From the NCBI GenBank assembly GCA_035559535.1, contig DATMBG010000040.1:62001-126000 (forward strand): DNA of 64,000 nucleotides, given 5' to 3'. A program made the position numbers and the translations under genes. Source of the DNA: Candidatus Limnocylindrales bacterium (lineage in GTDB: Bacteria; Moduliflexota; Moduliflexia; Moduliflexales; JAUQPW01). Shown piece after piece: positions 1,906-47,656 of this stretch. Under the pieces are notes generated by a model, which saw only the letters and a program-made list of their open reading frames with translations, did no database searches and was not told the DNA's origin. Position 1 is the first letter of the stretch. Each line of letters starts with the position of its first letter.

Positions 1906-3504
1906 TCAGAGATTTTTTAGATCGGCTTCCCATTGCTCTTTGTTTGATCTTCTGGTCCGAAGATACTCTTGAAAGTGTTTTTTTACCAGGGTATTGACCT
2001 TAATTTGCTCATCGGCACCCTGTAATTTTAGATAATTATTGTATTCTTCAAAGGCTTGATTCACCGTATCTTCTTTGATTTTTGCCAGTTGCTCAAAGGC
2101 ACTGCCATATCTCGTTAATCCCCCTTCGATATTCTGCTCTGTTTCGGCAACCCGTCCTTTAATGAGTTCTGTCTGGGCCGATCTTCCGATACTTTCTGCG
2201 GTTTTGAGGGCATCTTGAAGGCGAGGAAGCCTTTTCAATTCCCGGTTAATAAAAAAAGCGGCTTCTGCGGCAATTTTTACCCAGGCATAAGCGGAATCGT
2301 TTTCTGCTTTGTTAACGGTAGCTTCTATATTTTTGAAAGAAGCACTCAAGAGTCCTAAGTGGTTCCAGACGGTGGGTGGTATTACCCCAGAAGACTTATC
2401 CAGTGCAGTCAATTCATCGGTTAAGCGTTTCAAAGCATCTTCGGCATCGGCAAGCTGAGCATTGGTTTTAATAGTAATGGGAGCGATGGTCAGAGCCGGC
2501 TGAACGGGGGTTGCCCGGCTCTTTACATACTCAACCCAGGCTTCTTCTAGTTTTTTATTGGTATCCAGGCCGGTAAAAATTTGAGAAGAAATTACAAGGC
2601 GCATTCCTAGCGTCTCCTGTCTGGTTTGTGTTATTTTACCCTGGCTGTTAAGTTGATAGAATGGGATTTCGGTCCGTAAGGAAGAACGAAGGGCACTTTC
2701 TTCGGAATGGACGTGACCCCCCCGAGCCACAAAACCACCTACACGTCCCTGATAATATTCAATTTGATAAAGTGAACCTGTCATTTCTGAAACATTCCCC
2801 AACATATCGTGGATACCTAGAGGATTTGGCTCACGGAGGCCGATATCCTTTATCTTTCCATGGGAAGAGGTCGGTCCGGCAAACCACTCGTATTTGCTGA
2901 GGGGTCCGGTGTAGGGATATTTCTTATCAAACTCAAGGGGCTGAACTTCACTTCCACCCCGGGCTGCAAACTCCCATTCACTTTCGGTTGGTAGCCTCAA
3001 AAATCCAACCGCTTTATCATTTCTAGGTAATTTGTCCAGGGCGTTTTCAAAAAGCCAGAGGTTATATTTATTGATGAACTCCTGGGCCTCAAACCAGGAA
3101 ATATTCGTTATCGGCTTCTGGCTATCGCCTGCTTTCCCAGGGTCCACAACGGCATAATACTGGGCCTCGGTGACTTCATATTTTCCCATATAATAAACCC
3201 AATCCGGCTGATTATGGAGATTATTTTCAACAAATGCCCCCCCGAGGATCACACTGGTCGGAAACTCTTTAAACCCGCCACCGGATCTATCCCCAACTTT
3301 GAATTCTCTCAAGGCAAATGGTTTATCTCCCTTCCCGATAAAAACCCGCCGGAAAACCATCTTTGCCTGGTTAGGCATAGGTAAAATAAAGTCATCGTTC
3401 TGAGGCTTCGGATTGTAAATGTCTGCGGCATCTATGGATATCGTCCAGAACAGGTAAAGGATAAAAATAAAAACAATTGGCAGGTATTTCTCGGGATTAT
3501 TCAT
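1906..3504 (-). CDS. Secreted SUMF1/formylglycine-generating-enzyme-fold protein with C-terminal helical region
   Basis: 532 residues with a signal peptide (residues 1-27, ending in DAA). Residues about 70-310 have the FGE-sulfatase/SUMF1 fold: a YEVTEAQY strand, then NISWFEAQEFINKYN, then RLPTESEWEFAARGG, then LGNVSEMTGS, then FVARGG, then ETLGMRLVIS. The paired active-site cysteines of true formylglycine-generating enzymes are not evident, so this is more likely a binding or structural member of the superfamily. Residues about 330-532 are helical and charged. The start overlaps the end of the permease gene by 8 bp, indicating translational coupling, so the protein most likely works with the ABC transporter in the periplasm. 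Confidence 0.88.
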   Translation of the reverse strand: MNNPEKYLPIVFIFILYLFWTISIDAADIYNPKPQNDDFILPMPNQAKMVFRRVFIGKGDKPFALREFKVGDRSGGGFKEFPTSVILGGAFVENNLHNQPDWVYYMGKYEVTEAQYYAVVDPGKAGDSQKPITNISWFEAQEFINKYNLWLFENALDKLPRNDKAVGFLRLPTESEWEFAARGGSEVQPLEFDKKYPYTGPLSKYEWFAGPTSSHGKIKDIGLREPNPLGIHDMLGNVSEMTGSLYQIEYYQGRVGGFVARGGHVHSEESALRSSLRTEIPFYQLNSQGKITQTRQETLGMRLVISSQIFTGLDTNKKLEEAWVEYVKSRATPVQPALTIAPITIKTNAQLADAEDALKRLTDELTALDKSSGVIPPTVWNHLGLLSASFKNIEATVNKAENDSAYAWVKIAAEAAFFINRELKRLPRLQDALKTAESIGRSAQTELIKGRVAETEQNIEGGLTRYGSAFEQLAKIKEDTVNQAFEEYNNYLKLQGADEQIKVNTLVKKHFQEYLRTRRSNKEQWEADLKNL

Positions 3505-37700: not shown

Positions 37701-39242
37701 CAAGATAAAAAACTGGCAGAGAGTTTGGATTTTCTCTACGTTTACAACTTAAACTTACCGGGTAAAGATGGATTTTTCTTTCTGGGTGAAGGATTTATCC
37801 GAAAACTGACGAGTCCGGCTTTTAAAATCAAAGACCTTCGACGGCACATCTGTCATCTTACCCTGGAAGATCTTCAAACTGCTTCCCTTGTTTTTTCCAT
37901 TGAAAAAAACTACTCGGAGCCTGTGACCATCTCAAAGCTTATGGCAGGAGGGTATTTACCCTATCTTCCCCTTTGTCCGGATCAAGGGGAGTATCAACCG
38001 ACTGATACTGGATATGGCTTTGCCTGTTCCATTCACGGTCGCCTGAACTCTTTAACTCATTTAGAATCCCTCTCCATCCATAGAATCACACAGACCGAGC
38101 GTACAGAGTATGAGCAGTTCAAGGCCCAATATGAGAGTTACTTCAGTCGATTTATAGATCCTGTTGGGGTCGGAATCAGTCTGGAAGACCACTCCCTTCA
38201 ATTGAGTACGGTAGTACTTCCCCTGATCAATGATCCTCTCTACACCCATATCCTTCGTTATAGGGATCGGAGAGTATCGACCTCTTTGAAAGACGCCGTG
38301 GGAGGACCCTCAAAATTTTTTGTTTTTAACACCATTACCCCGGATTATGGTATAACTACGGCTATTCGAAGTTCCATGTTGAAAAATATTTTGGACAATG
38401 GCTTATGGTTGTCGAATTACGCTTATTTTCACCGTATCTTGAGGACCTATCTGGATGAGAGTATTTTTGGTAATGAGCTGGTGGTGGGAGTTTTTGACTT
38501 TAAGTTCCCCGGAAAGATTCCTAGGGATCTTAAAGAACTCGCCCGGGCTCAAATAGAAATTCCCCTATTTCTTATCCAGAATTTAGAACGGGAAGGAAAG
38601 GCCTGGGAATATTTGCAAACGCTTTTTCACCTGGCATCCACCGAGAGTTATAAAGGGATTGAAATCAAAAAAGTTAAGATCACAGACTATTTGAATATCT
38701 ACGGCGCGATAGTCAGAAAATTATTCGTATTATCAACCTCCTCTGAAGCCATCAAACGGATCATAGATTTTCCTCAGATCTCCCAACAGAAGGATCATCT
38801 TCCGGAGGCATCGATGCCAGAGGTTGACCTCCAGACAGAAATTAATTTTGATAAAATTCCGCAGTTGCAGGGATATTTGCTTCAACTGGTTAGGAACCAG
38901 ATGAAGTGGTCCTGCAAGAAAAATCTGGTTACTCTCCAAAATCTGTTGGAATTATCTGGAGGCCCGAAATTAGGGTTGGATGATTCCGAAGTAATTCAAG
39001 ACTTACTCAAATTTGGAAATGTAAAGCACCCGCCGTTTTGTCCGGAAGGAGGTCGATACTACGTTGAAAACAACCAGGTCTATTGTTCTATTCATAATTC
39101 CCTGGAAAACTACGTAGAACCCGAGGAAATAACCGAGAAGTTTTTTCTCCTGCCTCTTTTTGCAAAGCTTGAGAAACTTTTAGCCCAGCTTCATTTTATG
39201 GAGGATGGAATCCTTTCACGGGTTGAGCTTTTTTTCAAATAA
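34722..39242 (+). CDS. Very large polytopic membrane protein fused to a two-zinc-ribbon soluble domain (DUF3352-like)
   Basis: 1506 residues with a TTG start; no ATG follows until after several membrane helices. Residues 1 to about 690 hold roughly twenty membrane helices of DUF2157-like character. Residues about 700-1506 are soluble and presumably extracytoplasmic, with segments reminiscent of DUF3352 proteins. Two matching motifs, CPDQGEYQPTDTGYGFACSIHG (shown here only as CP-x-G-x-Y ... CSIHG) at about 1085-1107 and CPEGGRYY ... CSIHN at about 1436-1455, look like paired Cys/His metal or structural knots of the type seen in pilin-like proteins. The function is unknown. It is flanked by a terminator-like hairpin and a thioredoxin gene, which could serve these cysteines. 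Confidence 0.75.
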   Translation: MDYLFIGLWILLGTILIAIIGHPLWLLYAALLRKIFRIGKKPLIQVSPEERGPAEREWQTRFYSHLFSGEGLKYVAYFGSIVFALAFILLLKDFIARLLTIRYVQFGGLILFTVLTYGSGWKLFIRTHHRILANVLLLIGAILFPVNFWYYQVYILEIESRDHHLVGFLCTILYFLTAVRLSHVIFSYLVPLGFYVSLLLLLYRLNEGLEWFTLVSAFMAVLYAYLAEYLQNQNKPFFKYPLIMTSLIGLLFSAISFPFLKSMENTYLPVYLFICGILVLYKVTQIQLDFRYLFLGIPFVGMIYTKYLTQFDLASYWTGIFFSTLSLTMAVIFWLLNYKAFANTGLSVHRDLPTLGFSDSQTSLNRKNLKALPLLFLAVTLMVFSFPMDFASYVYLVYQLTSLYELSRQYLNMNFSFDLLGEMWKGLQISIYYLGHFSFMSIIILLSMLFTAISAGILGRMILSRFLGFYSILAFLGFFTVTLIRFWHPLLYLEYYFLFYLGLAILSLFLLLGLSQKSGEMSQIFTPPLYTLTIVSLLISYILAGRYFNFSLDRNFDYYLCTLSLFGIIMLALTHSKGCGEFSRARLFGALATIIPVCLSSFVDWTSYTFFIFATITLALIYLVYGWIRQDMVFASIGILFLLIQVIYILATVQPGQVLIKLILLTLGMILIGLGIYLKKWSSRIHLLPFVFCFLCYSSAWGANPTDTKSKLDRLVKMSLINPEDELLKVRIRRYATENQLPVPDLPISEARNQFHRTFLKDNLAVVTAARAIEGTLQLNALRQRIYQREPQDIEVTTLQPVLIRSYDYQTLLEKKGLYRPIPPIARIVPEDKIYLGFKNLRALYQFINLWDTFVVPALNYLMTSVPLEPMKELLESQLGISEKMVTTPEWNDVEEIALLFGDPYLQEGTDISLIVRFSREDSLKAAQKLLLEEKQEPLPTLPERSFTENLLIGTSPLTLSHGDLEKKPIITSMNSYLIISNDAQVVDRIQNGQDKKLAESLDFLYVYNLNLPGKDGFFFLGEGFIRKLTSPAFKIKDLRRHICHLTLEDLQTASLVFSIEKNYSEPVTISKLMAGGYLPYLPLCPDQGEYQPTDTGYGFACSIHGRLNSLTHLESLSIHRITQTERTEYEQFKAQYESYFSRFIDPVGVGISLEDHSLQLSTVVLPLINDPLYTHILRYRDRRVSTSLKDAVGGPSKFFVFNTITPDYGITTAIRSSMLKNILDNGLWLSNYAYFHRILRTYLDESIFGNELVVGVFDFKFPGKIPRDLKELARAQIEIPLFLIQNLEREGKAWEYLQTLFHLASTESYKGIEIKKVKITDYLNIYGAIVRKLFVLSTSSEAIKRIIDFPQISQQKDHLPEASMPEVDLQTEINFDKIPQLQGYLLQLVRNQMKWSCKKNLVTLQNLLELSGGPKLGLDDSEVIQDLLKFGNVKHPPFCPEGGRYYVENNQVYCSIHNSLENYVEPEEITEKFFLLPLFAKLEKLLAQLHFMEDGILSRVELFFK

Positions 39243-39440
39243 AGCCATTGACAGCTTTTTCTTCAGGCTGTTTTATATTTTTAAAGTAGGGATAAGACAT
39301 TTGCCGGGCAGACTCAAAAAGTCGACACCTGAACGACCGGTGAGGGTCTTATATCAAATCAGAATTGGTATTACACCCTAAAGTAGGGATCCCGCAAAGT
39401 AGGTATGAAGGACACCTTGCTAGCCGAAAGAAGACCTTTT

Positions 39441-40133
39441 ATGAAAAAAAAGATATGGATGCTGAGTCTGTTAATATTCCTGGGAATTGCTTTGGGTATT
39501 GGTCTTTTTATTGGAATTCCCCTTTTTCTGGTAACCGGAAATGAAACCATTGAAAAAGACTTAGAACTTCCGACGGCGCCGGAAAATACTTCCCATCCCC
39601 AGGGCTCTCCATCCCCGGAAAAAGAGGATTCTCAGTTGACCAAGAAGATTTCCTCATACATGCGACAGATGGCCATACAAAAATTTGAACGAAACCTGCA
39701 ATCCGAGGATTTTGCCTTACCCAGCCTCTCTGGGGATGAAGTTCGATTAAGTGATTTTCGTGGAAAATGGATTCTTTTAAACTTTTGGGCAACCTGGTGC
39801 GGGCCTTGTCGGGAAGAAATGCCCTCCATGGAAAAACTTTACCAGGAGTTTAAAGATCAAAATTTTGTCATCCTGGCTATTTCCATTGATCAAGAGGAAA
39901 TGGGAGTGGTAGCGCATTTTGCAGATGCCTTTCATTTGAGTTTCCCGATTCTATTAGATCCAAAACAAGCAACCACCTCCACCTATGCGGTGAATTCTAT
40001 TCCCACCACTTATGTAGTGGATCCCAATGGGATGATTATCGGAGGAGCCCGAGGTTCTCGTAATTGGGAAAGTGAAGCCGCACGCAATCTGATCAAAGTT
40101 TTGCTGGAGACTTCACAGAAATCTCGGAGTTAG
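39441..40133 (+). CDS. TlpA/ResA-like membrane-anchored thioredoxin
   Basis: 230 residues from the ATG at 39441, preceded by AAGAAG. An ATG at 39405 would add a 12-residue charged leader and cannot be excluded. Residues about 2-30 form a positively charged signal anchor (MKKKIWMLSLLIFLGIALG). A linker of about 60 residues precedes the thioredoxin fold: FALPSLSGDEVRLSDFRGK, active site WATWCGPC, then VNSIPTTYVVDPNG. It reduces or isomerises disulfides in the periplasm. Position after the 1506-residue protein with conserved cysteine motifs makes that protein a candidate substrate (inference). Confidence 0.92.
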   Translation: MKKKIWMLSLLIFLGIALGIGLFIGIPLFLVTGNETIEKDLELPTAPENTSHPQGSPSPEKEDSQLTKKISSYMRQMAIQKFERNLQSEDFALPSLSGDEVRLSDFRGKWILLNFWATWCGPCREEMPSMEKLYQEFKDQNFVILAISIDQEEMGVVAHFADAFHLSFPILLDPKQATTSTYAVNSIPTTYVVDPNGMIIGGARGSRNWESEAARNLIKVLLETSQKSRS

Positions 40134-40301
40134 AATAACATCCATTGATAGTGTATAACGTAAAACTGTTAGTACGAGGAACGGGAGCGAGGTCAAAGGT
40201 TATAAAGATGAATCCTAGAGAGGATAATCTCTTTGACTTACAAACTCCTCGTAATTTCGCTTCTCGTAATAACAGGAGGCCCTTCTAAGGGAAGTAAGCC
40301 T

Positions 40302-41273
40302 ATGTCTAAACTACCTCTTACGCTTGCATGTTGGGATTACGACCGGGTTAAACCCTTGATGCTCAAGCAAGTAGAACCTGAAGGAATTGCTTTAAATCTC
40401 TTGCCTTATGCACCCGACGATTCGGTCTGGAGAATGGTTCGAGGACAGGAATACGATGCTTCAGAGATGACCATGGGAACCTATGTCCTTTTAAGATCTT
40501 TAGGACAGGCTCCTTACATTGCTATTCCGGTATTTCTGGCCCGATTCTTCCCCCATTCCGGTATTTTCGTCAATACCAAAGCCAATATTCATGAACCTGC
40601 AGATCTGCGAGGCAAAAAGGTAGGAGCTCCTCAATATCAAATGACCACAGCGGTCTGGACTAAGGGAATCCTTCAGCATGATTATGGGGTCATGCCGGAA
40701 ACCATAAACTGGTACTTGGGACGGGCCGAAGTTGGACTCGATCTTCCACCCAATATAAAGTGGCAACTGATTCCCCAGGGAACCGGCAAGATGCTGGCGG
40801 ATTTACTCATTGAAGGAGAATTAGATGCGTTATTCATGCCTCGGGTTCCACCGAAATTCAAAAATGGCCCTCCTCATATCAAACAACTCTTTGCCAATCC
40901 CAGACAACTTGAAATCGAGTACTACAAGCGTACAGGTATCTTCCCCATTATGCACTGTGTGGTCATTAAGGAATCTCTTTATCGAGAAAACCCCTGGATT
41001 GCTTTCAGTTTGTATCGGGCTTTCTGTAAAGCTCGGGATATCTGCTATGAAGATCTGGATCAGACGCTGGAAGGACTGAAATATATGGTTCCCTGGTTAG
41101 ATATGCATATGAACGATGTCCGTCAAATTTTGGGAAAAGATTTCTGGCCCTACGGGATCAAAGCCAATCGGAAAGTGTTGGAGACCTTCATAGAATATAT
41201 GTTAGAACAGCACCTGATCAAGAAGAAACTTTCGGTGGAAGAGTTGTTCTGTGAGACTACCCTGGATACCTGA
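40302..41273 (+). CDS. 4,5-dihydroxyphthalate decarboxylase-like protein (periplasmic-binding-protein fold)
   Basis: 323 residues from the ATG at 40302; a TTG 23 codons upstream would add a hydrophobic stretch made from repeat-like sequence and was rejected. The N-terminus LTLACWDYDRVKPLMLKQVEPEGI, then YDASEMTMGTYVL, then GIFVNTKANIHEPADLRGKKVG, matches the family of Pht5/4,5-dihydroxyphthalate decarboxylases, which share the fold of NMT1/ThiY substrate-binding proteins. Absence of a signal peptide supports a cytoplasmic enzyme. No other aromatic-catabolism gene is near, so either an orphan decarboxylase or a binding protein is possible. Confidence 0.82.
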   Translation: MSKLPLTLACWDYDRVKPLMLKQVEPEGIALNLLPYAPDDSVWRMVRGQEYDASEMTMGTYVLLRSLGQAPYIAIPVFLARFFPHSGIFVNTKANIHEPADLRGKKVGAPQYQMTTAVWTKGILQHDYGVMPETINWYLGRAEVGLDLPPNIKWQLIPQGTGKMLADLLIEGELDALFMPRVPPKFKNGPPHIKQLFANPRQLEIEYYKRTGIFPIMHCVVIKESLYRENPWIAFSLYRAFCKARDICYEDLDQTLEGLKYMVPWLDMHMNDVRQILGKDFWPYGIKANRKVLETFIEYMLEQHLIKKKLSVEELFCETTLDT

Positions 41274-41356
41274 TTTTAAGGAAGTCATGACACACATATA
41301 TACCGGCATAAAGAGTGAAAGCTCCGGTGGGGCAATAGGGTCGTAGCCTTCGATTC

Positions 41357-41532
41357 CTACCGAAGATGAGGGAAGAGAGTCGAAGAGGCGCTTCCCTCGT
41401 CGGTCTCAAACCGATACGCCTTATCGATCTGAACCCACGGCAACTCCTGTCGCCGCCGTGTTGCGTGAGTTTCTTCTCCACCCCGAGCCGCGCTGCAAGT
41501 CACGCTTCACGTGTCCCAGTCTTGTGGCTCAT
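41357..41532 (-). pseudogene. DUF899 (thioredoxin-like) gene remnant
   Basis: From the ATG at 41532 the frame reads MSHKTGTREA, then TGA, then LAARLGVEKKLTQ. After a frameshift it continues as RRRQELPWVQIDKAYRFETDEGSAS to a TAG at 41357. This matches the start of DUF899 proteins, which begin MSHK-GTREEWLAAR and continue with a (L)PWVR-DK-Y-F motif; the tryptophan codon has become TGA. The rest of the gene is missing. It lies just past the end of the integron-like array. Confidence 0.5.
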
Positions 41533-41577
41533 CACCGTTCTTATCTCCCTCTGGTTAGTTGTCAAACCTGTCAGGTG

Positions 41578-41681
41578 GTCTAACGGCAAAGGCTAAGTTG
41601 ACGAGAAGGGGGGGAACGGGACGTGGTTCTCAACCCCTTCCCCCACCGCCCCCTTCCCATCAGCTTCAGCGTGTGTTAGAC
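41578..41681 (-). other. attC site 1 (integron recombination site, 104 bp)
   Basis: Read on the minus strand it starts GTCTAAC (41681-41675, R'') and ends GTTAGAC (41584-41578, R'), a perfect match to the RYYYAAC/GTTRRRY rule. Next to these, ACGCTGAAGCTGA and TCAACTTAGC pair with one extra base, as in the L''/L' arms of attC sites. It begins 5 bp after the HepT stop codon. Confidence 0.75.
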
Positions 41682-41686
41682 TGTTT

Positions 41687-42031
41687 TTACGGATTCTCCC
41701 GTTGCAAGATTTCTTCAATTTCTCGGCGAAGTAAAGGAATCTTATTGGTTACTACATCCCACACGATATCATAATCCACGCCAAAATAATCATGTATGAG
41801 CCGATCCCTCATGCCAGCTATCGCTCTCCACTCTACTTGGGGATAACGTTGCTTCAGATCAAGGGGAACTTTCTTTGTCGCTTCCCCAATGATCTCCAAA
41901 CTCCGTACAAAGGCCCGCTTAAGCGTCTCATCCTGATCAAACTGTACCTTACTTAATCCCTGTACCTTGGCTGTAAGATAATTGGCCTCCTCAAGGATAT
42001 GTCGAAGGTACTCAATTGCCAAAAGTGACAT
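41687..42031 (-). CDS. hepT: HEPN toxin of an MntA-HepT toxin-antitoxin pair
   Basis: 114 residues from the ATG at 42031, chosen because AAGGAGG lies 6 bp upstream. It is an all-helical HEPN domain with the RNase motif R-x4-H-x-Y in [17 protein letters not shown] (about residues 85-95), where the tyrosine is the residue that MntA adenylylates in studied systems. HepT cleaves RNA or tRNA when freed. The start overlaps the end of the mntA gene by 20 bp. The pair is bounded by attC sites on both sides, so it forms an integron cassette. Confidence 0.9.
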
Positions 42032-42329
42032 ATTCAACCTCCTTGAGGATATGGGGACCAATATAGGGACTCAGGGCTTCTGGAGTCACAAGCTCTACCC
42101 GGCGATGCAATAACTCTTCCAATAAGAAGGCGAGATTCATGAAGTTGTCAAAGGTCTTTTGGCCCGGCTCAAACTCAACTAACAAATCTACATCGCTCTG
42201 GTCATGCGGCTGCTCGCGCACAAAAGAACCGAAAAGCCCCAACCGCTTTACCTTGAGCTTCCGAAGCTGTGTACGGTGTTCAGAAAGTACTTCTAAAATA
42301 TCCTGTTTAGTTTGTACAACCTTATTCAT
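42012..42329 (-). CDS. mntA: MntA-type nucleotidyltransferase antitoxin
   Basis: 105 residues. The minimal nucleotidyltransferase motif is intact: [23 protein letters not shown] (GS about 34-35 and the DxD at about 46-48, with VEF carrying on). MntA adenylylates the HEPN partner HepT and so silences it. The start codon is 23 bp from the preceding attC end and has no strong Shine-Dalgarno site, as is usual for the first gene in an integron cassette. HepT follows with a 20-bp overlap. Confidence 0.9.
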
Positions 42330-42351
42330 TGCTATTCGACTTTCATAGACA

Positions 42352-42411
42352 GGCTAACAGCTCGCCGTTCGGCTACCGACGAAGCCAGTCGGCTGCAGTG
42401 GCTTGTTAGGT
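42352..42411 (-). other. attC site 2 (60 bp)
   Basis: On the minus strand it begins ACCTAAC (42411-42405), continues AAGCCACTGCAGCCGAC, and ends GCTGTTAGCC with GTTAGCC at 42358-42352. R'' fits RYYYAAC exactly, R' differs from GTTRRRY at one position. Central stems CCGAC/GTCGG and GCC/GGC give the imperfect palindrome expected. Size is that of classical short attC sites. Confidence 0.7.
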
Positions 42412-42585
42412 GATACCTCCTTTTTCTTGGTTTTTGCCTAGATGCTGCGCTTTGAAAGATATGCCTGATAAGCGCTCTACCGCATCCTTACCCCCTTCAT
42501 TATTACCGTAACGTCTTTTGTGTATCATTTCTTTGGTAATCTTAACACTCAGATTATCTTTTGTAAGTGGAGTTTTTTCATACAT
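42406..42585 (-). CDS. 59-residue hypothetical cassette protein
   Basis: The ATG at 42585 opens a 59-codon frame, MYEKTPLTKDNLSVKITKEM and onward, basic and soluble, with no family I recognise. Its stop codon TAA is the one inside ACCTAAC, the outer box of attC site 2. Genes whose stop overlaps the attC are characteristic of integron cassettes, and this is the main reason for believing such a short frame. An AT-rich run (TATATATATATAATG) sits immediately upstream. Function unknown. Confidence 0.55.
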   Translation of the reverse strand: MYEKTPLTKDNLSVKITKEMIHKRRYGNNEGGKDAVERLSGISFKAQHLGKNQEKGGIT

Positions 42586-42730
42586 TATATATATATAAAA
42601 TCCATATCCCTCTTGTAAGACAGATAAAGGGAATTTTGCCAGAACTCCTTACTCGGTTACTCCTACTCCAAATACATGGGTTGCTATTATTTCGATTTTA
42701 TGAATGGATAGCTGAGCCGTCCCCACCCGC

Positions 42731-42829
42731 CCCGCTGGCAAAACTAACCTGACTAACCAGCCACCCTCGCAGGCAGAACAAAGTGGTGAAAAGCACAAGG
42801 ACGGGAATCAGCTCCAGCGTGGGTTAGCC
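42731..42829 (-). other. attC site 3, degenerate right end
   Basis: On the minus strand it begins GGCTAACCCACGCTGGAGCTGA, shown in short: GGCTAAC (42829-42823) then CACGCTGGAGCTGA, closely matching the left arm of attC site 1 (TAACACACGCTGAAGCTGA). The right arm (TCAGGTTAGTTTTGCC) resembles that of site 1 but the final GTTRRRY box is not clear. It lies 59 bp after the end of the HNH frame. Confidence 0.55.
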
Positions 42830-42888
42830 TACCGCTCGTCCTTTCGGAAGAGGTAGAACCTCTCCCCTTTGCGCCTTCTCAGACATTT

Positions 42889-43401
42889 TCATGATGAGGT
42901 GAGTGATAACCACTCTTTAGAGTAAATGTCAAGAACTCCATCCATGTTCGGGTCTTTCAAGTCGAGCGTACCTTGCATCTCATAGATGTAATAGGCCAAC
43001 TCGAGGAATTTAGAGAGAACCAGCTTGGGAATATCGTCCAGACGTTCAGATCCGTACTACTTCGAGTTGCATTTCTTACACGCGCAGACACAGTTATCAG
43101 ATGAGTCAAGGAGGGCTGTAATTCTGGAAGCAACCCCTGCTCTTGAGACTGGGATAATATAATCAGTGCTCAGACTGCCAGTGGCCCTACAGTAAACGCA
43201 AACCTTCCCTTTCTCTAGTTCCTTCTCGTAGTCTCGTATGGATGAAGACCAGCTCATCTCACTGGATTCGAGCTTCTTGTAGCGAGAGATCACAAAGCCG
43301 TAATTACCCTCAAAACCGGCAACTTGAGTAATAAGCGGGGCATACTGCCGGTAGATAAGGCGTCGTACCGTGTCAACGTATTTTGGGGGCTTGAGAGGCA
43401 T
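42889..43401 (-). pseudogene. HNH endonuclease gene interrupted by an in-frame amber codon
   Basis: From the ATG at 43401 a frame of 114 codons ends with CVYCRATGSLSTDYIIPVS ... CACKKCNSK at a TAG (43059-43057). The Cys-x2-Cys pairs, the DYIIP segment and CNS are those of HNH nucleases, although the usual DHI histidine is a tyrosine. The same frame stays open for 55 more codons after the TAG (YGSERLDDIPKLVLSKFLEL, then MQGTLDLKDPNMDGVLDIY) to TGA at 42889, a C-terminus that fits this HNH family. One nonsense change therefore splits the gene; both the lost histidine and the stop suggest decay. Confidence 0.7.
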
Positions 43402-43445
43402 ATCGACCGCCTTCGATCCTCATAGTCATGGCTTTTCAAGCAGCG

Positions 43446-43537
43446 GGCTAACAGGCAGTTCCCCTGCGAGCGGAGCGAGCCGGGTGTACCTTCAGGGTTT
43501 GTGAGTGCGAAGCAGAGCACCTCACAAACCAAGTTAT
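43446..43537 (-). other. Possible attC site 4 (right end clear, left end uncertain)
   Basis: The minus strand ends GCCTGTTAGCC with GTTAGCC at 43452-43446, 45 bp before the HNH start, the usual cassette spacing. Upstream lies a hairpin GGTTTGTGAG/CTCACAAACC (about 43494-43528). The matching outer RYYYAAC box is not convincing (CAATAAC at about 43537). Confidence 0.4.
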
Positions 43538-43867
43538 TGTATAGTTTCTGGATAACTCCACGACGTTGGAAGGCTCCCCGGGTCTCTATGCGGCAGCAGG
43601 CTCTCTGATTTGAGGTCGCTCGCCGGTGCCAGGACCTCCCACATCGTCCTTTGTCGGATTATATTCCATACCTAAATTCTTAACAAGTTTTTTCTGCTAT
43701 TTTATCTTCTTCTTTCTGTATATCCTGTCAGGTAGAAGATGATCTGGAAAACTATGTCACTTCAGGAGAATACCTTAGGCTCAATAGCTCTCCAATCTTA
43801 CAAACCTCCTTTGAGACTCGTTTAATGGAGTTCAGGTGCTATCTGGAAAAGATAAAACCGGGTTTAT
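43538..43867. other. Intergenic region at the array end
   Basis: No firm gene. A 27-codon frame on the minus strand (43669 to 43586, MEYNPTKDDVGGPGTGERPQ and on) might be a further tiny cassette gene, but nothing else supports it. The half near 43680-43867 is AT-rich and featureless. Confidence 0.3.
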
Positions 43868-46666
43868 CTATCGGAAGAGGATATTCCATCCCCCGTCCTT
43901 AGGTCGCCAGGTTGCCAGGTCTATACTTCCATTTCCATCATAGTCGGCGGGTACAGGAATATCTCCCGGTTGACCCCCTGGAATTACCTGGGAACCGCCG
44001 CCGGAGAAAAGGATATACCAGTTTGCCTCCCCGGGTCGCCAGACTGCTATATCTGCCTTTTTATCTCCATCGTAATCGGCGGGTACGGGAATATCTCCCG
44101 GCTGGCCATGCCGGGTGATTAAGAAGCCACCGGTAGAAAGAAGAATATACCAGTTTCCCTCATCGGGTCGCCAGACTGCTATATCGATCTTCCCATCTCC
44201 GTCATAGTCCGCCGGTACCGGCGTATCCCCCGACCGACCCCATTGAATACTTATGGGATTTTTAGTATCTGGGGACTGGATGGTCCATTTACCCAGAGAT
44301 GGTCTCGAAAAGGGCGTAGGGTTGAAGGTGGCCAGATCCAGGATTCCGTTTCCGTCATAGTCTCTAGGAACAGGAACATCTAAAGCATCTCCAAATTGGA
44401 AGATTTGAGTCGCACCCTGAGAACTTAAGATATACCAGATGGCTTCGGAGGGTCGGAATACGGCAAAGTCTGCCTTTCCATCCCCATCATAATCCCCGGG
44501 TACGGGTCGATCTCCCAATATCCCCCAGGGCTGAATGGTAAGAAAACCGGTACTTCCTAAAACATACCAGTTTCCTTCCCGGGGTCTCCACACGGCAATA
44601 TCCGCTTTTTGATCCCCATCGTAATCTTGAGGTACCGGGATATCTCCGAAGATCCCCCAGATCAAAAGAGGATTTGATATGGGAATCGGGCTCAAGTTGA
44701 AGTTTTGGGTTAGCAGGTTACCGTCAGGGATCGTGACAGTACTCGGGGTTGAAGTCTGATAGCCTGGTGCCGAAGCGATCAGGGTATAAGTCCCTGGTGG
44801 TAGAAGTCGGGAGTAATTTCCGGTTTCATCCGTGGTGGTTTCAAAGGTATGGGTTCCATCATCGGCCATAATACGGGCTCCTGCAAGGGGGCCACTTGAA
44901 ATAGTATCGGTAACTACTCCTTGCAAGGTACCCTGGGGGGGTGGGGTACACGAAGGAAATCGGAAAGTACCTATACGGGTATGCCAGCCTGTTTTGCTGG
45001 TGGTTGGGTAGTATTCATTGGTATACCAGAAGGTGCAATCGTCTAGGGGATCAACGGCCAGCATTGAGTAATCCCCCCAACGGCCAGAAAAATCCTTTTG
45101 TGAACCATTTCCTGTCATAAGCACCGCTTCACCTCGAAACAATCCGTTGGGTGGATCGGTGGCGAGTCGACCTGCGTATCGGATGGAAGGAAAAGTTGTC
45201 GTACTGGAAACGCTATATCCGACGGCGAGGTTCCCATCCTTATCCATGGCCGCACTTCCCATCCAACGATGGTTGGTATCAGGGGCAAAGCTGGCCTGTT
45301 CCTGGATGAAAAAAGATCCACCGGGGAGGTTACGACGTATCTCATAATAACGAACTCCAGCATGGTTTTTATCTACATCTACAGTATGATTAACCACCAG
45401 CGATTCATGGGTACCAAAATTTCGATACTGTAAGCGGAACATCAACCGGTCCGAGATAACCGATAATTTTGCGTTTGTCCCGGGTTGGGGAATACAAAGA
45501 TCTCGGGGATTTGCCGAAGACGTACACAGAAAAACAGGATCAAAAGGAGCCGTGATAAGAGGGCTTTCAGGCCTTTCGATAAAGGTAGATCCGGCGGGAT
45601 TGAGAAAATCAGCATGAAACTCAAAGATCCTCAAAGCATCCCCGGGGGCTCCTGCTTCATCGGCTACACCGACAACGAAATAGTTGGGCGTACCGGCCGG
45701 TGGAGGGGAACCATCCAGATCGGCAGGAAGCATACCAAGTAAGGAAGGATCTAAAGAGTTCAAATCAAAATAAATAAAGCCGGCATCCGGGTCCCCTGCC
45801 AGCATTTTGGTCCGATCTAAAGCAAACACCCCTATACTGGCATAGGGACCAAAAAAGGGATCGAACTGATTAACAGTCATGTAATAACCATCCGGCCATA
45901 CTCCTAATTTGGGATAATCGTTAAACTTGTTATTGGGCATAATAAAATCATATCGAAAGTAAGCTCCCGTTGGATCATTGGTTTGAGAAATTGCAATACA
46001 CTCATGGTAGGGTGGTACATCAATGGCACCGGGTGTAAGAAGAAAAGCGAATTGACTGATCAACCACCGATCGGCCAGGGGATCATAGAGAACAATGGGA
46101 TCTCCTTGATCTACCGTCTCACAGACCCCTCCAAAACCGGCAAACAATAAACTAATCGGAAAAGGACCGAATAAAGAGAGTCCTGTTTGTTTATCAAAAA
46201 CTTCGATGAGTGTGTTAACAGCCTGAACATAATGCCTGGGACCTACATCTCCGTTGGTATCGGGCGGAAGACTTCCAAGTCCTATAACTGCCAGATTATC
46301 TGCATTACTGATTCCTTCAAAGCTCTGTAGGGGAGCCGGCATGAGATTAAGAAACAATTCACGTTGAACTACCGGATCCCCGGATGGGGCCAACCTGTTT
46401 TCAACCAGGGGCAATCGATAGATCGGAATCTCACGGACCTTGTTTTTCCCCCCGGTCCCGGGTTTAGGCAAAATCGGTTTGAGATGGCGAATCGGTGGGG
46501 ATATATCGAAATGAGCAGCATACCCTACCCGGGGAACCAGATTCTTTTTTACAAGATTTTTCTCTACCTTCTCTTCTATGGGAGGACGTTGGGCATAGCC
46601 CGGAATTAAATAAGCACTTATAGCCAGAAAAACCAACAAAGTTAGAACAAAAGACCAGACTTTCAT
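43868..46666 (-). CDS. Secreted FG-GAP/VCBS-repeat protein with carboxypeptidase-regulatory-like domain
   Basis: 932 residues with a signal peptide (1-25, ending GYAQ). Residues about 110-570 form a large uncharacterised domain with beta-propeller-like strands ([26 protein letters not shown]). Residues about 590-670 are a carboxypeptidase-regulatory/PEGA-like beta-sandwich ([34 protein letters not shown]). Residues about 687-932 are six roughly 40-46-residue repeats of the form [22 protein letters not shown], each holding a DxDGDxxxD calcium-binding loop. Such proteins are exported and often bind polysaccharide or surfaces. It is monocistronic. The repeat DNA is itself near-identical between units. 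Confidence 0.88.
   Translation of the reverse strand: [932 protein letters not shown]
43871..44662 (-). repeat. Six tandem coding repeats of about 130 bp
   Basis: The units encode the [14 protein letters not shown] repeats of the FG-GAP protein. Units 1, 2, 4, 5 and 6 are very similar; unit 3 is the most diverged and has a small insertion. Confidence 0.8.
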
Positions 46667-46804
46667 ATTTTATCCCTGTTTGGTGTAGAGAGGTTAAACC
46701 AAATGACTATCCAGAAGGGATCCTTCTTTTACCCCTGCTACAGTTTGTATGGTGGTTCAGTGTAAGCCTCCAGTGAGTTCACAAGATGCATTGATGTTAT
46801 TAAA

Positions 46805-47656
46805 TTATTTAATGGCTCCCTCGGTTAAACCCTGAATAATATAACGTTGTAAGATCAATACAATAACCAGCAGAGGGGCACTGGCGATGATACTCCCTGC
46901 TGAGAGTTCACTGAAGTGAATATCATAAGGGGTAATCCAGTCAGAGATGGCTGGTGTGACAAGCCTGATATTAAAGACTCCCAGAACCTTAGCGAACATA
47001 AGTTCATTCCAGGAAGTCAGAATGGCAAAAATAGCCGTTACCGCGATCCCTGGAGAAGAAATGGGGAGGATGACCCGGGTCAAAGATTGAAGCCGTGTGC
47101 ATCCGTCTACCCGGGCTGCTTTTTCGAGATCTAAAGGTACACTTTCGAACAGGCCTTTTAAAAACCATATCACTAAGGGAAGGAGAAAGGCACTAAGAGC
47201 CAGAATAATCCCCAGATGGGTATCGATAAGTCCAAGCTTGCGGATGATAATGAGTAAAGGGATGAGCATGGCAATTCCCGGCAGCATATAGAGGATCATT
47301 AAGGAAAAGTAAAGGGTATTCCTGAAGGGGAATCTCAATCTGGCAATGGCATAAGCGCCTAAAGTACCTGCAATTAAGCAAATTGCCGTTGTTGTAAAAG
47401 AAACAATGGCGCTGTGATAGAGGGAATTCACGAATTTCTCATCCTTCAGAACAAAGTTATAAGATTCTAGGGTTAATTTTTTTGGAAGGATGGGCGGGGG
47501 GTAGTTGTATAGATCCAGCTCTTTTTGCAGACTGGTTAATATCATCCAAACATAGGGAAGCCATATCAGGAGAAGCATGCCTATAATTAGGCCGTAAACC
47601 AAAAGTTTTCTCCCCTTTTCAAGGTAAAGATATTTTGTTTGTTCACCTGAAAACAT
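46805..47656 (-). CDS. Carbohydrate ABC transporter permease, MalG family
   Basis: 283 residues, six membrane helices. The EAA coupling loop is present as EKAARVDGCTRLQSL with ILP following. The sequence ends YIIQGLTEGAIK, the common C-terminus of MalG/UgpE-type permeases. With the MalF-type partner (53 bp upstream), the Tat-exported binding protein and the MalK-type ATPase it completes an importer of the CUT1 class for oligosaccharides or sugar derivatives. It is last in the operon. Confidence 0.95.
   Translation of the reverse strand: MFSGEQTKYLYLEKGRKLLVYGLIIGMLLLIWLPYVWMILTSLQKELDLYNYPPPILPKKLTLESYNFVLKDEKFVNSLYHSAIVSFTTTAICLIAGTLGAYAIARLRFPFRNTLYFSLMILYMLPGIAMLIPLLIIIRKLGLIDTHLGIILALSAFLLPLVIWFLKGLFESVPLDLEKAARVDGCTRLQSLTRVILPISSPGIAVTAIFAILTSWNELMFAKVLGVFNIRLVTPAISDWITPYDIHFSELSAGSIIASAPLLVIVLILQRYIIQGLTEGAIK

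What the first reader, a model, noticed from the sequence alone, without database searches (positions are those of the whole stretch)
42406..42585. 59-residue cassette gene whose stop codon lies inside attC
A basic small protein with no recognised family, bounded by attC-like sites. Small unknown cassette genes are a rich source of anti-phage and toxin functions.
Basis: partly seen in the sequence, partly recalled or inferred. Interest (0 to 1): 0.5.

Follow-up and report, generated by a model that had tools for sequence, protein, structure and literature searches.

The report
Orphan ORF in decaying integron array
The 59-codon reading frame does end inside a genuine integron recombination site, but it has no detectable relatives and weak coding signals, and it sits in a partly broken cassette array without an integrase gene, so it is most likely an ordinary degraded cassette rather than a new defence or toxin gene.

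Summary
The ORF is real, on the minus strand (42585→42406). Its TAA is bases 4-6 of a 60-nt attC (42411→42352), as in ordinary cassette genes. The attC holds up: a covariance model containing no window sequence finds two sites in 64 kb, this one (28.5 bits) and the next cassette's (26.2 bits), both minus. Its 21-nt left arm, one base changed, recurs in 20 stretches of genome contigs. The upstream "attC" is half there: one arm looks genuine, the whole site scores 6 bits. The protein is doubtful: no convincing homologue in any collection tried, codon usage below 98.8% of host gene windows, no Shine-Dalgarno before the ATG, frame open 21 codons upstream without a start. The surroundings form an attI/Pc-like leader plus cassettes (broken HNH, this ORF, intact-looking MntA/HepT, DUF899 remnant) with no intI found. 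In the sister genome the block is replaced, with breakpoints at the attI-like edge and one base from attC R'. Best reading: a degraded or ORF-poor cassette in a CALIN-like array. No anti-phage or toxin evidence.

The parts
42406..42585 (-). 59-codon ORF, ATG to TAA; stop codon in R'' of attC2
   Evidence: no homologue or family; one weak match read as chance
42406..42648 (-). same frame, open for 80 codons back to a TAA at 42651-42649; no ATG/GTG/TTG upstream of 42585
42352..42411 (-). attC2, 60 nt: R'' ACCTAAC, R' GTTAGCC; L''/L' pair over 12 positions round one extrahelical base
42751..42829 (-). damaged upstream attC (attC3): R''/L'' arm 42829-42805 looks genuine, L'/R' half not recognisable
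   Evidence: 6.0 bits minus, 6.1 plus; 20 of 25 identical to the attC1 arm
41578..41681 (-). attC1, 104 nt, end of the MntA/HepT cassette; R''/R' fully complementary
   Evidence: 26.2 bits; missed by the arm matrix (1.0) and not in the filters-off list
42012..42329 (-). MntA-like antitoxin gene (GSx10DxD present)
41687..42031 (-). HepT-like RNase toxin gene (RX4HXY present); ATG at 42031 follows AAGGAGG (tool ORF starts at 42061)
42889..43401 (-). HNH-domain cassette gene broken by an in-frame TAG at 43059-43057; the frame continues to TGA at 42891-42889
43530..43824 (-). attI-like leader with a Pc-like promoter (TTGTTA-17-TATAAT, 43686-43658), ending ...AATAACTTG
43448..43529 (-). ORF-less hairpin piece between the attI-like leader and the HNH cassette; similar piece at G001:C173
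41385..41584 (-). remnant of a DUF899 cassette, shared with sister genome G001 (75% identity)

Best explanation
This is the 3' part of one integron gene cassette in a short, decaying array that has an attI-like site and a Pc-like promoter but no integrase gene beside it. Its attC would fold on the bottom (plus) strand and be cut at G^TTAGCC by an integron integrase, which today could only come from elsewhere in the genome (open integrase frame on contig C50). The upstream attC has lost its L'/R' half, so the segment is probably now locked to the broken HNH cassette and can only be excised with it. The 59-codon ORF is most likely not an intact functional gene: it is either the 3' remnant of a longer cassette gene whose beginning was lost with the upstream attC half, or a frame left open by chance in an AT-rich, ORF-poor cassette. 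Shown by computation: the attC, its orientation, no intI found nearby, the replacement of the block between sister genomes. Inferred: bottom-strand recombination, in-trans integrase, non-function of the ORF.
For: attC. On attC2, 12 L''/L' pairs: on the bottom strand 7 Watson-Crick, 4 G-T and 1 C-A mismatch (11 of 12 pair); on the top strand 7 Watson-Crick, 1 G-T and 4 A-C mismatches (8 of 12 pair). The R stem has 5 of 7 Watson-Crick, one G-T on the bottom strand and one mismatch (register chosen by hand). Stop at attC positions 4-6, as in aac(6')-IIa, a HAD hydrolase and aadB. Array: two attC by model, attI/Pc-like leader in five aligned copies from two genomes, two of them flanking the C50 integrase frame. 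No integron integrase match on C40, and none by tblastn with the G001:C23 integrase in window 41200-47000. Decay: in-frame TAG in HNH, half attC3, DUF899 broken in G001. ORF doubt: codon score -0.095 per codon, below 98.8% of real gene windows and reached by 54.6% of off-frame windows; MntA 0.186, HepT 0.175; frame open upstream of the ATG with no start; no Shine-Dalgarno before the ATG; no convincing homologue.
Against: The ORF frame scores better than the other two minus-strand frames (-0.303, -0.395) and is reached by only 3.7% of shuffles; an open frame of 80 codons ending exactly at R'' has a resampling frequency of 0.35%. The HNH ORF, a recognisable gene family, scores hardly better (-0.074), so the codon test is weak for imported cassettes. 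[quoted passage not shown] The DNA fold of attC2 is not exceptional (z -0.73 plus; -1.12 minus), its R' departs from GTTRRRY at one base, and the model score is inflated by the way 8 of 14 training sites were chosen.
Confidence: 0.6

Rival explanations
1. An intact, translated 59-aa orphan cassette protein, expressed from Pc or a local promoter, with a small host-adaptive role (two predicted helices, basic).
For: Open frame ending at the canonical place in attC; best of the three minus-strand frames; helices 9-26 and 31-48 in a single-sequence AlphaFold model.
Against: No convincing homologue or family; no Shine-Dalgarno at the ATG although the neighbouring HepT start has one; model confidence low.
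Confidence: 0.25
2. A non-coding, promoter-bearing cassette: the AT-rich segment supplies sigma-70-like promoters that read into the MntA/HepT cassette downstream; the ORF is incidental.
For: Cassette 39.5% GC, last 177 nt 37.3%; promoter-like matches on the minus strand at 42581-42553 and 42528-42499, and 8 matches in the 2.3-kb region against 2.5 (sd 1.7) in shuffles, 7 of the 8 on the minus strand. Non-coding cassettes make up 6-49% of Vibrio arrays (PMC1382264, passages).
Against: Both promoter-like matches in the cassette are only 9 of 12 and AT-rich DNA gives them easily; MntA/HepT may use Pc or its own promoter; by that paper's >150-bp rule this 177-bp ORF would not count as non-coding.
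Confidence: 0.2
3. The site is not an attC at all but a chance inverted repeat, and the ORF is simply intergenic.
For: Weak DNA folding energy (z -0.73 plus; -1.12 minus); attC2 R' deviates from consensus; the loose CTAAC/GTTAG pattern alone is uninformative in this genome (43 matches, backward control 143).
Against: second attC, attI-like leader and block replacement at the same locus.
Confidence: 0.04

Closest known systems
Integron gene cassette with attC (59-be) site
   Same: 60-nt attC with R''/L''/L'/R', extrahelical base, orientation with the gene, stop codon in R''.
   Different: Upstream attC is half lost; ORF is an orphan and may not be a gene.
[quoted passage not shown]
   Same: Two attC sites without intI found nearby; [quoted passage not shown]
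   Different: Keeps an attI-like/Pc-like leader in front of the cassettes, which the definition does not require.
Non-coding cassettes of Vibrio arrays (PMC1382264, passages)
   Same: Short AT-rich cassette, no BLAST-type relatives found.
   Different: Has a 177-bp frame (their limit was 150 bp), and no second copy was found in the own genome.
Type VII MntA/HepT toxin-antitoxin (PMC7641770, passages)
   Same: Neighbouring cassette carries both signature motifs GSx10DxD and RX4HXY.
   Different: A separate cassette; nothing found links it to the 59-aa ORF. Scores below NCBIfam equivalog cut-offs.

Membership tests
Integron gene cassette | R'' RYYYAAC and R' GTTRRRY core sites (consensus recalled) | tested here: met
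   R'' ACCTAAC fits; R' GTTAGCC departs at one of seven positions. R'/R'' pairing 5 of 7 Watson-Crick plus one G-T on the bottom strand.
Integron gene cassette | L''/L' stem with an extrahelical base in L'' | tested here: met
   On the bottom strand 11 of 12 positions pair (7 Watson-Crick, 4 G-T), one C-A mismatch, one unpaired base (register set by hand); model hit 28.5 bits.
Integron gene cassette | gene oriented towards its own attC, ending at or near R'' | tested here: met
   TAA at attC positions 4-6 on the strand favoured by the arm score, 19.8 against 11.6.
Integron gene cassette | a recombination site at the upstream edge | tested here: inconclusive
   attC3: 6.0 bits minus, 6.1 plus; one arm attC-like.
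Integron gene cassette | excision/integration by IntI | not testable with these tools
   Block replacement between sister genomes at the attI/attC edges is indirect support.
Complete integron | intI next to attI | tested here: not met
   No intI match on C40; none by tblastn with the G001:C23 integrase in window 41200-47000.
CALIN | at least two attC sites without an integrase | tested here: met
   Two attC by covariance model with no intI found.
Known anti-phage or toxin families | profile match of the ORF | tested here: not met
   0 families in PADLOC at E<=1, Pfam at E<=1 and E<=5 and NCBIfam at E<=1; two weak PHROG matches of unknown function, best E 0.033.
MntA/HepT (neighbour cassette) | PF01909/PF01934 pair with GSx10DxD and RX4HXY | tested here: met
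   NCBIfam scores 43.9 and 39.2 are below the cut-off of 60.

The most novel reading that the evidence does not exclude
In this little-sampled phylum (4 genomes held, this one included), attI-Pc leaders occur apart from intI and act as landing platforms served in trans by an integrase elsewhere. Sister genomes with about 93% identical flanks carry different cassette blocks between the same attI-like and attC edges at a locus where no intI was found in either, which suggests exchange without a resident integrase. The 59-aa ORF would be one recently delivered orphan passenger.
Probability: 0.3. Interest if true: 0.5.

Novelty: new member of a known kind. Interest (0 to 1): 0.2.

Why it matters
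As a protein, little can be said: it is one more orphan cassette ORF. The locus is more useful. It shows an integron-type array (attI-like leader, Pc-like promoter, two attC by model, a type VII toxin-antitoxin cassette) in a phylum for which only four genomes are held, and gives a pair of sister genomes with different cassettes at the same site. That pair makes the question of in-trans integrase action on intI-less platforms testable.

Tried and rejected
Homologue searches without a convincing hit: 59 relatives at E<=0.001 (own genome only), 4 genomes of the phylum at E<=0.1 (own genome only), 385 genomes at E<=0.01 (overlaps the former two), genome contigs (140 stretches matched a pattern, none confirmed), viral contigs (17 stretches, none confirmed), plasmids and phages by tblastn at E<=1. 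reach close relatives only, and queries of 59-79 aa limit all of these. No metagenome scan was available.

One weak match (G004, E 0.0038 among 385 genomes) lies in a frame that reads like ribosomal protein L27 beside one like L21 (names recalled, not searched). I took it as chance because Pfam gives no match at all to the ORF at E<=5 and, of the 385 genomes, only this one besides the own genome matches. A PHROG match (E 0.033) and a PDB match (9mui, E 0.31) were taken as noise.

Rfam gave no match in the window at gathering thresholds, so attC had to be modelled here. The loose pattern CTAAC-N38..68-GTTAG found 43 places a strand in the genome against 143 for its backward control, so it is no evidence on its own. 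The first arm matrix, from 10 plasmid attC, was dominated by one near-identical type: leave-one-out scores ran from -10.0 to 73.7, attC2 is not among its 12 rows at score >=7, and so it was replaced. In the second matrix near-identical plasmid sites were reduced to 5, and L064:2871-2930, the one that failed leave-one-out, was dropped; that choice was made after seeing the first result. The second matrix does not recognise attC1 (1.0), and the filters-off run of the covariance model over 39000-46000 does not list attC1 either; only the whole-window run with default filters does. Thermodynamic folding was a poor discriminator: attC2 z -0.73, attC1 -2.15, C55:828 -5.80, one plasmid attC -3.97 and another -1.68. 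The intI tblastn used a wrong-frame translation and is void (its attC2 pairing part stands); one search replaces it. In one search the matches of the first 86 residues of the 511-aa C50 frame to the window and G001 are antisense to the attI leader, outside the integrase part.

Full report
The ORF and its strand. The finding lies on the minus strand: ATG at 42585, TAA at 42408-42406, 59 codons. The frame stays open to a TAA at 42651-42649, 80 codons in all, with no ATG, GTG or TTG before 42585. The bases before the ATG are an AT run with no Shine-Dalgarno, while the neighbouring HepT start (ATG 42031) follows AAGGAGG.

The attC. The TAA is bases 4-6 of a 60-nt site at 42411-42352. The same geometry is seen in cassette genes of three of the six plasmid stretches fetched: aac(6')-IIa, a HAD hydrolase and aadB each end at locus position 3504 with attC starting at 3499. 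Not every cassette gene does so: yjjG in L064 ends before its attC. Arm matrices trained on 5 plasmid and 4 G000/G001 attC score the site 19.8 on the minus and 11.6 on the plus strand; 8 distinct sites score higher among 5,020 pairs in about 395 kb (some loci overlap), 4 of them training sites. A pattern of the 21-nt left arm, with A or G at one position, occurs in 20 stretches of genome contigs: 9 Planctomycetota, 4 Acidobacteria, and one each titled Chloroflexi, Nitrospirae, Nitrospira, Deltaproteobacteria, Hydrogenedentota, Halomonas and uncultured bacterium (groups read from the record titles). All 22 matches there have G where the window has A. Most are followed by a matching L' and R', and one contig has three in about 1.1 kb; at L075, L079, L080, L083 and L087 the automatic R' assignment was poor. 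The right arm, which was not used for that selection, scores 15.4 against a matrix from 17 of the 22 (the five poor ones left out); 4 of 12,261 GTT-anchored 25-mers reach this, one of them itself and one part of the attC at L056:2979-3038. The pattern had no match in viral contigs, and the attC region only three insignificant ones in plasmids.

Covariance model. Built from 14 of 23 prepared arm pairs, it gives two hits in the window at E<=10 with default filters: attC2 (28.5 bits, E 7.1e-5) and 41681-41578 (26.2 bits, E 2.7e-4), both minus. With filters off over 39000-46000 attC2 keeps 28.5 bits, its own reverse scores 9.6, and attC1 is not listed. In 18 other G000/G001 loci (223 kb) the model gives 15 rows at E<=5. 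Three sites there (L054:828, L056:2979, L058:1736) were in the training set; of those not in training, the best are L062:5455-5522 (44.9), L054:3250-3351 (34.6) and L060:1187-1260 (32.6). Because 8 of 14 training rows were chosen by the left arm of attC2, its model score is inflated; the right-arm test and one search are the independent support. In attC2's L''/L' stem, 11 of 12 positions pair on the bottom strand (7 Watson-Crick, 4 G-T, one C-A mismatch) against 8 of 12 on the top (7 Watson-Crick, one G-T). That fits constraint on the bottom strand, the one integron integrases are known to use (recalled), but the register was set by hand. Thermodynamic folding does not single the site out: 49 of 200 shuffles fold as well.

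The upstream edge. The site at 42829-42751 scores 6.0 bits minus and 6.1 plus with filters off. Its first 25 bases match the arm of attC1 at 20 of 25. Among 397 CTAAC-anchored 25-mers scored against the arms of attC1 and C55:3250, those two themselves score 25, C173:4227 scores 21, this one 20 and the next 17. So this looks like one genuine arm with its partner lost or unrecognisable. A deletion here could also have removed the start of the next gene, which would explain a frame that is open upstream but has no start. This is inference.

Is it coding? The codon score is -0.095 per codon, against a mean of 0.199 for 59-codon windows of 47 long ORFs; 98.8% of those windows score at least as high, as do 54.6% of off-frame windows and 3.7% of shuffles. 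In favour, the other two minus-strand frames score -0.303 and -0.395; plus frame 0 scores -0.031 but has 3 stops. The broken HNH ORF scores -0.074 before its stop, so the test has little power for imported genes. The frame ending at the R'' TAA is open for >=59 codons in 1.3% and >=80 in 0.35% of 20,000 Markov resamplings.

Homologues and families. None in 59 relatives, 4 genomes of the phylum, genome contigs, viral contigs, plasmids or phages. In 385 genomes the only other match at E<=0.01 is one of E 0.0038 that I read as ribosomal L27 by chance. No Pfam, NCBIfam or PADLOC family; PHROG best E 0.033, PDB best E 0.31. AlphaFold on the single sequence: mean pLDDT 67, pTM 0.33, helices 9-26 and 31-48; I ran no fold search on so weak a model.

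The locus. Downstream on the same strand are MntA-like and HepT-like genes with the signature motifs GSx10DxD and RX4HXY (motifs as in PMC7641770, passages), then attC1. Upstream is an HNH-domain ORF broken by an in-frame TAG. Further up, 43824-43530 is a leader that I aligned in five copies from G000 and G001, two of them flanking the C50 integrase frame; a sixth, partial copy at G001:C80 beside another integrase match was not aligned. It holds a TTGTTA-17-TATAAT promoter-like match, 10 of 12. Four of five copies end AATAACTTG and one AATAATTTG. Three continue with TTAG, the first bases of a cassette; the window copy and G001:C173 continue instead into an ORF-less hairpin piece. I read this leader as attI plus Pc. 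No intI match is on C40, and tblastn with the G001:C23 integrase finds none in window 41200-47000.

Comparison with the sister genome. G001 holds the same locus on C34: 93% identity over 37856-41388 and 92% over 48000-43847 on the FG-GAP gene side. Homology on the left ends at 43530, the last base of AATAACTTG, and on the right resumes at 41585, one base before R' GTTAGAC of attC1. Between these edges G001 has about 8.2 kb, including a large ORF with DNA methylase, DUF559 and MTES_1575 matches, instead of the window's 1.9 kb. The G001 attC at the right edge is only a 32-nt remnant at 13.7 bits, E 1.6, and the window's left edge does not continue as a clean G^TT junction. Beyond the right edge both carry a DUF899 cassette, broken by stops in G001 and a remnant in the window. 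IntI-mediated replacement is the simplest reading; homologous recombination in the flanks, or loss of intI after the exchange, is not excluded.

Compared with what is known. The array fits CALIN, attC sites without an integrase (PMC9024848 and PMC8618304, passages), with a retained attI-like leader. [quoted passage not shown] this ORF is 177 bp. The phylum of this genome could not be named with these tools, so I make no claim that integrons are new to it.

Verdict. The stop codon inside a genuine attC is confirmed, and it is ordinary. The two-sided attC bounding is half right. The protein is unproven and most likely not an intact functional gene. The intI-less attI-like platform with swapped cassettes is the part worth following.

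Noticed in passing
window 43530-43824 (minus); G000:C50, G001:C34, G001:C173: attI-like leader with a Pc-like promoter, aligned in five copies across two genomes; in the window and at G001:C34 no intI was found beside it.
   Followed up: partly
window 42889-43401 (minus): HNH-domain cassette ORF interrupted by an in-frame TAG; the frame continues for 55 more codons to a TGA.
   Followed up: partly
window 41687-42329 (minus): Intact-looking MntA/HepT type VII toxin-antitoxin cassette; MntA also matches PADLOC candidate models PDC-S09 (best E 1.3e-36).
   Followed up: partly
window 42416-42422 (minus): A perfect AAGGAGG lies at the 3' end of the ORF, a few bases before attC, with no start codon at the usual distance.
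   Followed up: no
G000:C42:133238-134098 and G001:C7, C80, C173, C95, C130: Several broken or partial integron integrases beside two open ones (G000:C50, G001:C23); suggests repeated gain and decay of integrons in this genus.
   Followed up: no
L078 (JAKLKT010000198.1) 2165-3259: Three similar attC within about 1.1 kb of a Planctomycetota MAG, a cassette array with nearly the same attC left arm as the window's site.
   Followed up: no
L039:3-4340 (G001:C34): In the sister genome the cassette block holds a large ORF (1,445 aa) with DNA methylase, DUF559/MTES_1575 nuclease and a weak intein-splicing match (E 8.7e-5, below Pfam cut-off).
   Followed up: no
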